Source: Amphibalanus amphitrite (Eukaryota > Arthropoda > Thecostraca > Balanomorpha > Balanidae). From it: a stretch of DNA of 64,000 nt. Both the position numbers and the translations under genes were made by a program. How positions within the stretch are numbered: position 1 is the first letter of the stretch; every line of letters starts with the position of its first letter. The notes beneath the pieces are model-generated. The model was not told where the DNA came from. It did no database searches and was given only the letters and a program-made list of their open reading frames with translations. Positions 7,101 through 37,101 of the stretch are shown here, piece by piece. Location of the stretch: NCBI RefSeq assembly GCF_019059575.1, contig NW_024881694.1, positions 620,001 through 684,000 of the forward strand, written 5' to 3'.

Positions 7101-8398
7101 CTATGAATGGCCTTGATTGAGAGCATCGCATGTCAACAGTCTGACGAGGCTCCAGGCACAGGTATCGTTTTGGGCCATCAGCCATCGTAGTGAGTCGGTT
7201 AAGCCACAGGGGACAGTAGGACATGTTACCCACTCGGGCGATACGTGGCCGCCAGCGATCCTGACAATGCTACCAAGGCTTCCATCACACAAGGCGAGCA
7301 CATGGTTTACAATCGAGCCAGTATGTCTCGTAGAACTTGTGTTCAGAAAAATTCGCGCTAATGCACTGAACAAAACGTCACGGAGACGATGGTCCCCATC
7401 AAAAGCATCCCTGAGGGCAGCAAATTGCGAGCGGCGCAACAGTGCCTGAACATTGGGGATGTTAAGTGCTTTCATCAGCGCTGAGTGATGAGCACTTCGT
7501 GGTAGCCTTAACGCTGCCTTAAGCGCAGTTGCCTGCCACCGTTCTAAGCGTTCGATGTCCGCGGAACTCAAAAGGGAAATAGAGCAGCCATAGAGCATGG
7601 TTGGGGACACAATCGCACGCCAGAGAAAGGCTTTGTCTGCCCCCGGTAGAAACGGACTGAACATGCCAGCTGGGGACAGACCGAAAAACGCACCCCTGCC
7701 CCTACGGATTCGTTCGGCTACCTGGTTGGCGCCCTGTAACTGCGAGCTCAGTTGGACTCCCAGGTGCTCTGTCTTTGGTTGGTATCGGAGAGTTTGCCCA
7801 CACAGATGCCAGCGGGGTATTTGCGTAATGAGCTCTGCGCCGAAAATGAAGCTGTGACTTTTTGTCATGTTAGGCGAATTGTGCACAAAATCTATCCTCC
7901 ACTTGCTCGCGAAGCTAGTAACAACATTCAGCATGCCTTGCAAATCACTCGTGTTACCGGACATCAGAAGAATATCGTCAGCGTATGCCACTACTGGGAT
8001 ATGGTGACCGAACAGGATGGGGCCGAGGCGAGAGTCATCAAGCTCCTGAATCAGTGGCATGAAGAACATGTTTGTTAAGCATGGTGACAAGAGAGCTCCC
8101 TGTCTTACCCCACGACGAATTGCGAAAGCATCTGACCACGCTCCAGCAAAGCGCACTCGGGAAGTTAAATGAGCGTACCATTTAGTCAAGAGGGCCCAGC
8201 TTCTCTTAGGTAAGTGTTCGTGTGCACGGAGCAGAACAGCTGAGTGCCAGAGCCGGTCGAAGCACTTCCGAGCGTCTAAATTGGCCACAAACAAAGGAAC
8301 CCTATGCGACAGAAAATGCTGCGCTGTCTCATGAATAAGGATAGAAGCCTATATGGATGGAGCAAACTCACAGAGGATTATCGCCTGCAGGCGAGCGA
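7101..8398 (-). pseudogene. 5'-truncated LINE reverse transcriptase
   Basis: An open frame of about 397 codons (7101-8294) begins inside the reverse transcriptase domain. It shows the catalytic LDARKCFDRLWH, the RGVRQGALLSPCL loop and the YADD box (AYADDILLMSG, residues about 103-113). A thumb and C-terminal region follows, with no RNase H. The same frame continues upstream as ILIHETAQHFLSHRVPLFV, crosses a TAG, and has a plausible CEFAPSI before it fades near 8398. The fingers, endonuclease and ORF1 are absent, so it is a dead 5'-truncated copy. The clade is uncertain; the TGA tail and lack of RNase H leave several options. Confidence 0.85.
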
Positions 8399-13360: not shown

Positions 13361-15565
13361 TTATTTATTTATTTATTTACTTCGTAGTGGCCGTCCCCTA
13401 TCTATGACCGAAGTCAAAGAGGCTATTCTTGGCACTGAGTCAATAAAAGATGGTGATGAAGTGGGTAAAAGAACATCATGCTATGACATAAAAAATGCTT
13501 AAAAATCACGATAAAAGCGCACAACACAATGCACATACATATACATACATATCACACTTCGTCCGCACCAGACGTCAGTCGACGTTTCAGCTGGTTTCTA
13601 AACTCGGTGACGGTCAGATCAGTAAAGGCGGCGGGGAGAGCATTGTACAGCTCTGCGGCACGGTATGTAAACTGCCGCTTTCCCGCCGCCGTGCCGCGTA
13701 TGTCAGGGAGACTCAGCAGGTTGTCACTGCGAGTGCTGCGCACATGGTTGGGCCGTTCGCGGTTCGTGAAGAACCGAGCAGCCAGAGACTCGGGCTGCCC
13801 AGTCTGACGGACCTTATGAAGCAGTGTGAGGGTGTGATGGACGACCAGGTCTTGGGAACACAGCCAGCCCAGGTCTTCTCGCACGGCGGATATGTGGTCA
13901 AATTTACGCTTTCCAGAAATGATGCGGGCTGCATAGTTGAAAATTTTTTGAATGGTTGCCATGTTTCTGCCAGAACCGTTGCCGTACACTGCCAAACCAT
14001 AGCGGATGTGCGAGAAGACTAGGGCTGAGACGATGATAGGAAGGGATCCGGGGGGTAGGTAGTGACGTAGGTGAGAGATGGCGGTCAGGATCCCTACGCA
14101 CTTCCGAGACAGCTGTGATACGTGCGAATCCCACGAAAGATGACGGTCGAAAGTGATACCAAGATTTTTCGCCTCGTAGCCGGGAAGGAGAGCTGTACTC
14201 CGAAATTTTACAGAGAAGGGGGGAAGGTTTCGTAGATTTTGCCGAGTGCCGATAGGGAGGAGCTCAAATTTCGCCTCGTTGACTTTCAGTCCATTGGACC
14301 GAAAGTACGCGTCCAGGGATTGAAGGGCCGCCTCCATGTCACCGATCAAGGCTGGAAAGGCGTTTTTTCTGCCAGAGACGAGAACCTGCGTGTCGTCGGC
14401 GTACTGCGTGACGCAGGCGCCGGCGGCATGCAGGCTGAGGTCGTTCGAAAAAACCGTGAAGAGAAGAGGGCCGAGAGAGGAACCTTGGAACACGCCTTTG
14501 GTAATTGGACGAGACTGGGAGATAAGTGTTGGAGAAAGGCTGACGCTCTGTGTATGGCCGGACAGGTAGCTGGAGAACCAGGAGGTGTCGATGCAGTAAA
14601 GCTGCAGCTTGGATAGTAATTTGGAATGATCGATGACATCGAAGCAGCGACTCAAATCGATGAGGCAGAGAAGCGAGATTTGACTTTGATCCATTGCGTG
14701 AAGCGCGCGGTCGGTGACGTTAATGAGGGCTGTCTCGGTAGAGTGTTGGGGCCTGAATCCGTGTTGGGATTGGGAGAGGAGATGGTTGGATGCGAGGTAG
14801 TCGTACAGCTGGAGCTGCACCACCTTCTCCACTACCTTCGCGATGACAGGAAGGATCGATATAGGACGGAAGTTTGAAGGATCGTCGGTGTTCCCGGACT
14901 TGTGAATTGGATGTACCAGGGCGTGCTTCCAGGATGACGGTACCTCGTTAAGAATGATGCTGGAGTTAATGATGTGCAATAAAACAGGACCGATGATGCT
15001 AAAAGAGAGCTTAAAAGTACGAATACAAAGACTATCAGTGCCACTAGCGGAAGAGTTGCGCATACTAAAAATGACTAGCTGTAAATGACTAAGCGTGATG
15101 GGCTGAAGGGTGAAAGCGCAGGCGCCCACCCGCGGCAGCCGCACCGGCACCTCACGGGCTGGACCCAGTGCAGCCACCTCCGCGGCTACCCGCGGGCCGA
15201 CGCCGACAAAATAATCGTTAATGGCGTCAGGGGTGACAGCTGGAAGCACACCCCGGTTTGGTCGCCCATCGGTAATGAGGTGACGCATGTGTCGCCAGAG
15301 GGAGCTGGGGCCGTCGCTGCGAATCCTATCGGATATGTGCTGCCGGTTGTCCGCACGTATAGCAGAGCGCACCTCACGGTTGAGCTGGCGGTACTCAGCT
15401 GAGGCGTGCCCACCGGCCCGCAGCGCTGCCCCTCTCCGTATAATCAGGTCACGAGTCTGGTCAGATACAGGTGGAGCCACCGGGTTTCTGAGCCGAACAT
15501 CTCTAAAAGGGGCGTGTCGGTCGATGACGAGGCGGAGCCGATCAATCGAAAACTGATTGGCTAAT
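13361..15565 (-). mobile_element. CR1/L2-like LINE, 5'-truncated
   Basis: Minus-strand non-LTR element. The 3' end is marked by a repeated AAAT tail (13361-13380) after a 170-bp untranslated region. The 5' end lies near 15565, where similarity to a LINE linker stops. The endonuclease and ORF1 are missing. No convincing target-site duplication was found. It is inserted in the Pax intron, in the same orientation as the gene. Confidence 0.85.
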
Positions 15566-15630
15566 ATCCCGATACCAAACAATGTTTGCGTGCTACATTG
15601 ATTTGAATCGGCATGCAAACTTATGGTCAA
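13552..15630 (-). CDS. LINE ORF2 fragment with reverse transcriptase
   Basis: An open frame of 692 codons without a stop. Residues 26-200 resemble the linker after the endonuclease (IDRHAPFRDVRLR). The reverse transcriptase spans about 235-480, with HPIHKSGNTDDPSNFRPIS, HGFRPQHSTETAL, CLIDLSRCFDVIDH, GVFQGSSLGPLLF and QYADDTQV (YADD about 409-413). The C-terminal end YNALPAAFTDLTVTEFRNQL is typical of CR1/L2/Daphne-like LINEs. The first 25 or so residues are probably flanking DNA, so the start codon is not genuine. An intact frame over 2 kb suggests a young copy. The product would be a retrotransposon enzyme, not a host protein. Confidence 0.85.
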   Translation of the reverse strand: MTISLHADSNQCSTQTLFGIGILANQFSIDRLRLVIDRHAPFRDVRLRNPVAPPVSDQTRDLIIRRGAALRAGGHASAEYRQLNREVRSAIRADNRQHISDRIRSDGPSSLWRHMRHLITDGRPNRGVLPAVTPDAINDYFVGVGPRVAAEVAALGPAREVPVRLPRVGACAFTLQPITLSHLQLVIFSMRNSSASGTDSLCIRTFKLSFSIIGPVLLHIINSSIILNEVPSSWKHALVHPIHKSGNTDDPSNFRPISILPVIAKVVEKVVQLQLYDYLASNHLLSQSQHGFRPQHSTETALINVTDRALHAMDQSQISLLCLIDLSRCFDVIDHSKLLSKLQLYCIDTSWFSSYLSGHTQSVSLSPTLISQSRPITKGVFQGSSLGPLLFTVFSNDLSLHAAGACVTQYADDTQVLVSGRKNAFPALIGDMEAALQSLDAYFRSNGLKVNEAKFELLPIGTRQNLRNLPPFSVKFRSTALLPGYEAKNLGITFDRHLSWDSHVSQLSRKCVGILTAISHLRHYLPPGSLPIIVSALVFSHIRYGLAVYGNGSGRNMATIQKIFNYAARIISGKRKFDHISAVREDLGWLCSQDLVVHHTLTLLHKVRQTGQPESLAARFFTNRERPNHVRSTRSDNLLSLPDIRGTAAGKRQFTYRAAELYNALPAAFTDLTVTEFRNQLKRRLTSGADEV

Positions 15631-30111: not shown

Positions 30112-31430
30112 AAGACATCAGAGAGGGCCATCAAGAGGTACTCATCTGTTGAATATTTGACACCTGATGTGCGTATCTGGGACCGTACCTGGGTGCGGGG
30201 TGGTGGGCAGTGGGTGCACGGGCAGCGGTGCAGCAGTGCGCGGCGGCGTCAGTTTCCACGAGGGCGCCGGCGGCGCAGCGCCCGCCGACGCGGGCGCAGC
30301 GTCCGAGATCAACATGTCGATCGAGTGACGGAGTCGACCGGGGCCCTCCACTGTGGCGGCACGCAAGGCACGGCGGCGGCGGCACGGGCGGCGGCGGCGG
30401 CGGCGATCGCGGCGGCGCGGCGACACGGTCTGAGCGGGCGCGGCGCGCCTGGCCGCGCCCGCTCAGCGCTGCTCGCGCCGCGCTCACCCCGCCCCTCCCC
30501 GGCGGCCGGCGCGCCGCCGCCGCTCATTGGTCGGCGCCGCGGCCGGCCGGCGCGGCGCGGCCTCCCATTGGCCGAGCCGGCGGCGGGGGCGGCGCCGCCG
30601 GCTGCCGCGTCATTGGGCCAATTACCGTGGGTGCCGGTAATGTTCGGCCGAATTGGTGGCGGGTAGTTATTGAGCGCGGCGCCGCTTCATTAGGGCACGG
30701 GCGGTGACGTGTTGCCCCGCCCGCCGGCCGCCGGCCGCCCAGCGGCGCAGGCCGCCGCCAGAGCCGCCGCCCGCTCGCAGCAGCACAACACACGCACACG
30801 GCACATGCACGAATGCACAGGGCGAAGCGGGGAGCGACGCGCCCCAATTAAGACAGTTGCACGCACAGGGGTATGGTCTGGGTGCTGGCCTACAGAACGT
30901 ATGAGTGAGTTCAGATGCGCTGGGAAACTGGAAAGGCTGGCCTCTCAAATATGAAGGAGCGCTTTGATTCTGAAGGCATCAAACATCCACAAAGAGAATG
31001 AATGAGTCGCGCGAATACCTACTTGAAAGATCGACAGTTGAATCAGTACCGGCATGAATAATACTGAACGCTGATAAGTCACAAGAATCTCGCTTTCAAA
31101 CAAAACATACTTTTAGTCGCATGAAGCCAATTCATGCGACTGATTTCACTAAGTTGCAGCATAAGTTCACATCTTCACTTAGACCCAGTTTCTAATTGGT
31201 AGCTGTATGTAATTATCACTCACCTCGTTCTAAGGTGAGTGAGCTTTCCAAAATTGAAAACATATCCATTATTCACCCGCTGGAATTCATACGACTAGTC
31301 CTGAAGCTTACCTACGTAGTTCCCTGTTTTGCTATCATCAAGCTATGAAAAAGCCAATTTCAAAAATAAAAACTACAATAAGCGCTGCCAGCCAGTAGCG
31401 AAGTAAATTTGCTAAAAGTCTGCTTCGTGA
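30112..31430. other. GC-rich island and flanking DNA
   Basis: About 30180-30850 is strongly CpG-rich with GGC repeats. It contains a block with AT cores in GC-rich surroundings (30612-30695: CCAATTACC, CCGAATTGG, TTATTG, TTCATTAGG). It looks like promoter or enhancer DNA of a developmental gene; this is inference. At 31115-31141 there is a hairpin AGTCGCATGAA/TTCATGCGACT. Confidence 0.4.
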
Positions 31431-31452
31431 GAAAAACACGGAACAAATAGTG

Positions 31453-31490
31453 CATGGACGCGTTTCGATTATTAAATCTTCATCAGCATG
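31453..31490 (-). ncRNA. Hammerhead-ribozyme-like motif, minus strand
   Basis: This is the same 38-nt sequence as the motif at 31571-31608, in the left arm and on the opposite strand. The core boxes and GTC triplet are identical. Confidence 0.6.
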
Positions 31491-31570
31491 ACATAATCAC
31501 AGAGAAAACAAGATATGATAGATATGTATGATATGATATGATAGATATAAAACAAGATATGTGATTATGC

Positions 31571-31608
31571 CATGCTGATGAAGATTTAATAATCGAAACG
31601 CGTCCATG
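31571..31608 (+). ncRNA. Hammerhead-ribozyme-like motif, plus strand
   Basis: The order is CATG (stem I), CTGATGA (31575-31581), an extra A, GATT-TAAT-AATC (stem II), GAAA (31595-31598), a very short stem III AC-GC-GT, the cleavage triplet GTC (31602-31604), then CATG (stem I). All core residues expected for a type I hammerhead are present. The unpaired A before stem II is not standard and may weaken it. Confidence 0.6.
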
Positions 31609-31760
31609 CACTATTTGTTCCGTGTTTTTCTACTTGTCTCTATCAATATACATCTGCTTCGTGATAATGTAAATCCCTATATGTCCCAGCCCTTCCATTC
31701 AAAATCTCGCACGGTTGGGATCACGGGTCTCCAGCGGAACTGGTAGGTCGTTTCGTGATA

Positions 31761-36967: not shown

Positions 36968-37101
36968 GGAAGTATCATTAGAATATATGACCTTCTCCTC
37001 GGAAAATGACCAAATGAATGAAAATGATTATTTATAAATAATCATTTTCATTCATTTGGTCATTTTCCGAGGAGAAGGTCATATATTCTAATGATACTTC
37101 C
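36968..37101. repeat. Perfect 134-bp spacerless palindrome
   Basis: Arms of 67 bp match without error around a centre at 37034/37035 (TTTATAAA). CCAAATAAGGCTT occurs just before the palindrome (about 36912) and overlaps its right edge (37100-37112). The arms are unlike any other element in the window. Confidence 0.97.

What the first reader, a model, noticed from the sequence alone, without database searches (positions are those of the whole stretch)
31431..31651. Head-to-head pair of hammerhead-like ribozymes in a 221-bp element with a 12-bp target duplication
Seen: two inverted 69-bp arms, each with CTGATGA, a 4-bp stem II, GAAA, a minimal stem III and GTC followed by a CATG stem I. A perfect 12-bp direct repeat flanks the unit. 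Known: Penelope-like elements carry type I hammerheads. Inference: a tiny non-autonomous Penelope derivative able to self-cleave from either strand. The inverted arrangement without any coding part is unusual.
Basis: partly seen in the sequence, partly recalled or inferred. Interest (0 to 1): 0.8.

Follow-up and report, generated by a model that had tools for sequence, protein, structure and literature searches.

The report
Miniature palindromic Penelope retrotransposon insertion
The 222-base palindrome is one of many short, coding-free insertions of a Penelope-type jumping gene in this genome; each arm carries a small RNA motif that may be able to cut itself, and comparing the copies hints at how these elements insert.

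Summary
Window 31431-31652 holds two inverted arms, each with a complete type I hammerhead core, between 12-bp target duplications. It is one insertion of a Penelope-like element (PLE) family in the window's own 807-Mb genome. The 34-nt ribozyme occurs 289 times there, and one relative carries a 784-codon open frame with reverse transcriptase and, at sub-threshold score, GIY-YIG endonuclease. The head-to-head layout is published as typical for Penelope, and 33 of 33 opposed neighbours are head-to-head. The palindrome is mostly not an amplified unit: 26 different middles in 27 parsed mini copies. In a whole-element transcript the ribozyme is predicted to be buried in a -121 kcal/mol hairpin. 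Rfam finds no hammerhead, and the core has one extra A. Of 46 unique paired insertions with measured ends, 45 have one 3' end with a ~22-nt tail and one without; none has two tails; TSDs are mostly 12-13 bp. I read this as paired target-primed reverse transcription, with minis as run-off copies of the RNA 5' end. New member of a known kind; the insertion evidence is the interesting part.

The parts
31419..31430 (.). left target-site duplication TCTGCTTCGTGA
   Evidence: (12 nt)
31431..31516 (-). left arm: tailless antisense copy of the PLE 5' region, family coordinates about -108 to -22
31453..31490 (-). hammerhead in left arm; predicted cleavage between 31457 and 31456 on the minus strand (mirror of the right arm)
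   Evidence: coordinates mirrored
31517..31559 (.). 43-nt junction filler, GATAT-rich, with an 11-nt AAAACAAGATA piece that matches the element; not found as the middle of any other parsed copy
31560..31631 (+). right arm: sense copy, family coordinates about -93 to -21
31571..31608 (+). hammerhead in right arm: stem I 31571-31574/31605-31608, core 31575-31581, extra A 31582, stem II 31583-31586/31591-31594, GAAA 31595-31598, palindromic CGCG loop 31599-31602, cleavage predicted after C31604
31606..31652 (+). open frame MHYLFRVFLLVSINI..., the same residues as near the start of the 784-codon frame of L010 (true start codon unknown)
31632..31652 (+). 'tail': extra 3' sequence present on this arm only
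31653..31664 (.). right target-site duplication
   Evidence: one search shows that the two flanks overlap by it

Best explanation
It is a very short, coding-free insertion of a GIY-YIG-type Penelope-like retrotransposon. SHOWN: membership of a family with hundreds of ribozyme copies, a relative with an RT frame, TSDs, two classes of 3' end, head-to-head order, mostly unshared junctions. INFERRED: the element's enzyme made a staggered cut with about 12-13-nt 3' overhangs; each overhang primed its own cDNA on PLE RNA, one starting at the distal site (tail) and one about 22 nt upstream (no tail). Both cDNAs ran to the 5' end of the RNA, near family position -108, and the two cDNA ends were joined by host repair with filler or micro-homology. 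Filling in the overhangs gave the TSD. Because starts in the 5' pLTR run off after about 100 nt, the result is a 200-bp palindrome without coding sequence. The hammerhead in each arm is inherited cargo; in the palindrome it is most likely silent because it pairs with its mirror copy.
For: Family: 289 matches to the 34-nt ribozyme at up to 2 mismatches, 0 to the reversed control. Relative L010: 784-codon stop-to-stop frame with RVT_1 at E 3.4e-13, GIY-YIG at E 0.0023 in its C-terminal piece, partial tandem plus inverted copy, 12-bp TSD. The frame opens inside the hammerhead and contains the residues encoded by the window's right arm. Head-to-head: 33 '-+', 2 '++', 1 '--', 0 '+-' neighbours within 10 kb among the first 100 listed places. 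One tail per unit: 45 of 46 unique units; 17 of 18 in the subset that came from the ribozyme pattern. TSD 12-13 bp in 32 of 46, 9 bp or more in 40 of 46. Different middles in 26 of 27 parsed unique minis. The tailless arm reaches at least 5 nt further inward in 15 units, which copying back from the tailed cDNA cannot give. Run-off: in 11 pattern-derived minis the tailless arm ends at -106 to -111 in 10. Precedent: a purified PLE protein cleaves and extends both strands and starts at two sites that bound the 'tail' (PMC11167929, main text read).
Against: GIY-YIG is weak: 18.7 bits against a cut-off of 22.6 in one piece, not listed for the whole 784-aa frame at E<=0.01, and not listed at E<=10 for the C-terminal piece of the second copy. 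At least five copies (L011, L021, L023, L046, L049) show no inverted partner in the fetched stretch, so pairing is not obligatory. The in vitro PLE showed no difference in start site between strands (PMC11167929), whereas here the ends are unlike in 45 of 46. With strict end calling no TSD of 7 nt or more was found in 15 of 47 units. Identical joints with different TSDs exist (L038/L061; L044 and L030/L064 nearly so). No empty allele of this insertion was found. No transcription start is known; tailed arms end more variably (-88 to -121, and only 3 of 11 at -106 to -111).
Confidence: 0.75

Rival explanations
1. A genuine non-autonomous mini-element: the palindrome itself is transcribed and re-inserted by the PLE enzymes as a unit.
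For: Mini units are common: 20 of the 33 opposed neighbour pairs have ribozymes 74-148 bp apart (some of these are duplicated loci). They share boundaries and TSD length. L038 and L061 have the same middle but different TSDs; L044 has the same joint with substitutions; L064 differs from L030 by one base.
Against: 26 different middles in 27 parsed unique minis (four more, L024, L028, L040, L065, could not be parsed there, and their fillers differ from the others). The shared joints are all without filler at the commonest end positions, where repeated independent formation is expected. Arms match the RT-bearing relative at 98.9-100%.
Confidence: 0.08
2. Fold-back (self-priming): one cDNA is made, folds back at the RNA 5' end and copies itself, giving a hairpin.
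For: Inner ends of the two arms agree within 2 nt in 14 of 31 minis, permutation mean 9.7, p 0.007. Both arms of L037, L044, L052 and L071 share variants not in the reference, which fits copying or one shared template RNA. Self-priming has been proposed for Penelope (PMC3846280, passages).
Against: In 15 units the tailless arm reaches at least 5 nt further inward than the tailed arm, and a copy cannot exceed its template; the tail could not be added by copying a tailless strand. In L010 the two arms differ in length by more than 1 kb, the tailless one being longer.
Confidence: 0.14
3. A working pair of ribozymes that process RNA from both strands of the element, for example to make small circular RNAs as in animal retrozymes.
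For: Complete core and palindromic CGCG loop III like the amphibian ribozymes that work as dimers (PMC7229834, parts 1-3 of 6 read); the isolated 46-nt core gives stem I pair probabilities 0.45-0.85 and stem II 0.85-0.95; predicted dimer -11.3 kcal/mol. Seven arms end at -44 to -50, near the predicted cleavage site -48.
Against: Whole transcript: hairpin -121.3 kcal/mol, ribozyme pair probabilities 0.0; even one arm alone (73 nt) gives 0.04 or less. Cis dimers need tandem, not inverted, copies. Extra A in the core; no Rfam hit. Only 1 of the 7 short arms ends exactly at -48 by the calling used.
Confidence: 0.05
4. A DNA-transposon MITE or a chance inverted repeat.
For: Long near-perfect inverted repeats.
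Against: The right arm carries a 21-nt tail between inverted repeat and TSD; arms match an RT-encoding element; 289 ribozyme copies.
Confidence: 0.01

Closest known systems
Penelope/Poseidon-type Penelope-like elements (PMC3846280; PMC11167929)
   Same: RT frame (GIY-YIG weakly scored here), pLTRs in direct and inverted order, head-to-head junctions, optional tail on one inverted pLTR, TSD, minimal hammerhead at the start of the frame.
   Different: TSDs mostly 12-13 bp (8, 9 and 10 bp in the cited rotifer examples); tail about 22 nt (31 bp in rotifer; 30-40 bp for D. virilis as cited in PMC11167929); coding-free minis are common here; one extra A in the hammerhead core.
Minimal type I hammerheads of PLEs and amphibian satellites (PMC7229834; PMC7761336 passages; Luense 2017, title only)
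   Same: Type I, a single base pair in helix III capped by a palindromic tetraloop (as described for axolotl); predicted weak as monomer.
   Different: Extra nucleotide between A9 and stem II; AT-rich 4-bp stem II; not recognised by Rfam. An extra core nucleotide has a viroid precedent (title seen in the reference list of PMC6155905; its position is recalled).
Animal non-LTR retrozymes (PMC7229834)
   Same: About 220 bp, hammerhead, no ORF, low GC.
   Different: Retrozymes are direct tandem repeats; this is an inverted pair, mostly with its own junction, and with a PLE parent.

Membership tests
Penelope-like element, GIY-YIG clade | reverse transcriptase in the parent element | tested here: met
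   RVT_1 E 3.4e-13 in L010, also in L020 and L021
Penelope-like element, GIY-YIG clade | GIY-YIG endonuclease downstream of RT in one frame | tested here: inconclusive
   PF01541 E 0.0023, 18.7 bits, below the cut-off of 22.6, in L010:824-1219; no GIY-YIG listed for L010:5200-5763 at E<=10 or for the whole frame at E<=0.01; YKIPCGSCDKSYIGETGRG resembles the motif by eye (motif recalled)
Penelope-like element, GIY-YIG clade | pLTRs in tandem and inverted orientation | tested here: met
   L010 self-comparison: direct 891-nt and inverted 2048-nt copies; 33 head-to-head neighbours
Penelope-like element, GIY-YIG clade | tail on one of the inverted ends | tested here: met
   45 of 46 units
Penelope-like element, GIY-YIG clade | RT groups with PLE/telomerase RTs in a tree | not tested
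   no PLE reference proteins at hand
Type I hammerhead ribozyme | invariant core CUGANGA / GAAA / UH with three helices | tested here: met
   all core letters present, plus one extra A before stem II; helix III is a single pair
Type I hammerhead ribozyme | match to Rfam hammerhead models | tested here: not met
   no hit at gathering or at E<=10, nor at gathering in 4 relatives
Type I hammerhead ribozyme | self-cleavage | not testable with these tools
   needs an in vitro assay
Animal retrozyme | direct tandem repeat of hammerhead units giving circular RNA | tested here: not met
   arms are inverted; the 3 same-strand neighbours lie 2580-2593 bp apart, the PLE unit length

The most novel reading that the evidence does not exclude
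PLEs of this family insert by pairing two reverse transcriptases on one RNA molecule: the subunit on one overhang starts at the distal site and its partner 22 nt upstream on the other overhang. Two starts can therefore not coincide, every paired insertion is head-to-head with exactly one tail, and starts in the 5' pLTR give coding-free palindromes.
Probability: 0.45. Interest if true: 0.65.

Novelty: new member of a known kind. Interest (0 to 1): 0.5.

Why it matters
How Penelope-like elements complete an insertion is described as open (PMC11167929: additional steps yet to be validated experimentally). This family offers dozens of near-identical insertions whose ends, TSDs and junctions can be read directly. 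They suggest a simple rule (one distal and one proximal start per paired insertion, 12-13-nt stagger) that a purified PLE protein could test. They also suggest that templates are mostly not cut by their own hammerhead: 327 copies of the 3' segment (up to 1 mismatch) against 289 of the ribozyme (up to 2).

Tried and rejected
Rfam for a hammerhead: none in the window, in a 321-nt and a 49-nt stretch, or in L010, L011, L013, L020; the permissive hits were mainly microRNA hairpin models fitting the palindrome. Collection scans for the ribozyme with its flanks: 0 in viral contigs; 1 in genome contigs, a Streptomyces stretch that I take as chance because I see no stem II in it. A ribozyme pattern without the extra A and with the same loop III: 0 in the own genome, so other PLE families there were not found this way; the protein search for them did not complete. 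PDB sequence search with the L010 frame: weak matches only, best RT at E 0.0046 behind a ribosomal protein at 0.0025. Empty allele of this insertion: none. Idea that arms end at the hammerhead cut: only a weak cluster at -44 to -50, partly from loci picked for lacking the exact ribozyme; not used as main evidence. Fold-back and unit amplification: see rivals.

Rows dropped and selection. 8 of 55 pairs were dropped as duplicates by flank, and L059 because its leftmost arm runs on into the element; the tail count is then 45 of 46 with L070 (-14/-19) as the exception. L024-L043 came from a BLAST ranking with the whole palindrome, which favours short units with one tail; L010-L023 were picked by a tailed arm. 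L044-L071 came from the ribozyme pattern list: 28 of 50 clusters that I set out to fetch, 17 in list order and 11 chosen because both arms were listed close together; the 22 not fetched are mostly single-arm places. Every counted pair needed both arms to match an anchor that spans the cleavage site, so arms ending before it could not be counted as pairs. The place lists show only the first 100 of 289 and of 327 places, and the two lists overlap. L003-L009 are the same loci as L024-L030. Inner ends are numbered with the last tail base as -1, outer ends with it as 0.

Papers: PMC7229834 parts 1-3 of 6 read; PMC11167929 main text read; PMC3846280 part 1 of 5 and passages; PMC6155905, PMC7761336, PMC6431247, PMC8969392 passages only; Cervera 2014, Luense 2017, Terminon 2017 and Craig 2021 not held, known by title only. 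Whether the one-tail-per-unit rule or dual priming is in print was checked only by the searches in an open-access library; PMC3846280 already says the tail is on 'one of' the inverted pLTRs.

Full report
WHAT IS THERE. The window holds a 222-bp unit at 31431-31652 between copies of TCTGCTTCGTGA (31419-31430, 31653-31664). Two 72-nt arms, 99% complementary, lie 58 nt apart. Each arm carries CATG-CTGATGA-A-GATT-TAAT-AATC-GAAA-CGCG-TC-CATG: the complete hammerhead core with a 4-bp stem I and stem II, a single A-U pair closed by a palindromic CGCG loop, and one extra A before stem II. A descriptor finds only these two mirror sites in the window; simulated windows gave 4 hits in 60 and at least one hit in 11 of 500.

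WHAT IT BELONGS TO. The window lies in an 807-Mb assembly. The 34-nt ribozyme occurs 289 times there with up to 2 mismatches and never in the reversed control. In L010 it sits at the opening of a 784-codon stop-to-stop frame with a reverse transcriptase domain (E 3.4e-13). A GIY-YIG endonuclease is seen only weakly: E 0.0023 in one C-terminal piece, under Pfam's own cut-off, and not in the matching piece of the second copy. The frame opens inside the hammerhead, and residues near its start, MHYLFRVFLLVSINI, are those encoded by the window's right arm. L010 has a 2.6-kb unit repeated in partial tandem and an inverted copy. RT, pseudo-LTRs in both orientations, a tail, a TSD and a hammerhead are the marks of Penelope-like elements (PMC3846280, PMC11167929). 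The host was not identified.

WHY IT IS MOSTLY NOT A SEPARATE MINI-TRANSPOSON. Twenty palindromic copies were aligned to the window's. Arms are almost identical; the middles differ. Of 31 unique minis, 27 could be parsed and show 26 different middles; L038 and L061 are identical with different TSDs, L044 has the same joint with substitutions, and L064 differs from L030 by one base. These shared joints have no filler. Many other fillers contain short pieces of the arms. TSD sequences differ between unique copies and are mostly 12-13 bp. Most palindromes therefore formed at their own insertion; copying of a unit is not excluded for the few shared joints.

THE RULES OF THE INSERTIONS. Among the first 100 of the 289 places, 33 neighbouring pairs within 10 kb are head-to-head with 3' ends outward, 3 are same-strand at 2580-2593 bp, and none is tail-to-tail. 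The overlapping list built from a 22-nt 3' segment gives 30, 4 and 0. Sequence was obtained for 55 head-to-head pairs, 47 unique by flank; one (L059) lacks a measurable end. Of the other 46, 45 have one end at about 0 (tail) and one at about -22 (no tail); L070 ends at -14 and -19; none has two tails. By origin: 17 of 18 from the ribozyme pattern, 10 of 10 picked by a tailed arm, 18 of 18 from the whole-palindrome search with the window. TSDs are 12-13 bp in 32 of 46 and at least 9 bp in 40 of 46; a stricter end-based search found none of 7 nt or more in 15 of 47. In the 11 pattern-derived minis the tailless arm stops at -106 to -111 in 10, the tailed arm in only 3. Solo copies exist (L011, L021, L023, L046, L049: no inverted partner in the fetched stretch).

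MECHANISM. A staggered cut leaving 3' overhangs gives two primers. If each primes a cDNA on PLE RNA, the product is necessarily head-to-head, and filling in the overhangs makes the TSD. A purified PLE protein cleaves and extends both strands, and its two start sites bound the tail; it showed no strand difference in start site (PMC11167929). Two cDNAs that nearly always start at different sites suggest coupling, perhaps two enzyme subunits on one RNA; this is inference. Both arms of L037, L044, L052 and L071 share variants absent from the reference, as one template RNA or fold-back would give. Copying back one cDNA on itself is disfavoured because the tailless arm reaches at least 5 nt deeper in 15 units, although matched inner ends (14 of 31 minis, p 0.007) fit either fold-back or a shared RNA 5' end. 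Short units are read as run-off copies from starts in the 5' pLTR; that position -108 is the RNA 5' end is untested.

THE RIBOZYME. The hammerhead pairs alone give -2.4 kcal/mol for the monomer; a dimer is -11.3 against a best -14.4. The isolated 46-nt core shows stem I and II pairing at 0.45-0.95, one arm alone 0.04 or less, and in the whole transcript the arms pair with each other (-121.3 kcal/mol) and hammerhead pairs have probability 0.0. Of 94 ribozyme copies in the 46 unique loci 83 are perfect, as expected for young copies and no proof of function. The 3' segment occurs 327 times (up to 1 mismatch) against 289 ribozymes (up to 2), so most 3' ends were copied through the cleavage site. 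Seven arms end at -44 to -50, a weak hint that some templates were cleaved.

VERDICT. A real, well-read feature of a known kind: a coding-free Penelope insertion with a head-to-head layout usual for the group and probably silent ribozymes. The copies together give an unusually clean view of how such elements insert.

Noticed in passing
L075, L076, L078, L079, L080, L086: More than 130 nt of non-PLE sequence is fused to the last 77 nt of the PLE 5' region (hammerhead lacking C3 and the stem I 5' strand) with a variant tail, at six loci; some share flanks. A chimeric repeated unit.
   Followed up: partly
L054, L081, L082, L084, L089, L093: Seven arms end at -44 to -50, close to the predicted hammerhead cleavage site (-48); L089 exactly at it.
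   Followed up: partly
L044, L051, L057, L062 and L076, L078, L080: The TSD of one mini insertion, ATGGATAGTTGT, resembles sequence next to the chimeric units: perhaps one larger repeat carrying both.
   Followed up: no
window 36968-37101: Perfect 67-bp palindrome with no spacer.
   Followed up: no
window 7101-8294 and 13552-15630, minus strand: Two LINE-like reverse transcriptase frames, RVT_1 E 5.2e-18 and 5.4e-33; LINE is my reading by eye.
   Followed up: no
window 31546-31552: TATAAAA in the filler, about 25-30 nt upstream of the right-arm ribozyme; seen by eye, possibly chance.
   Followed up: no
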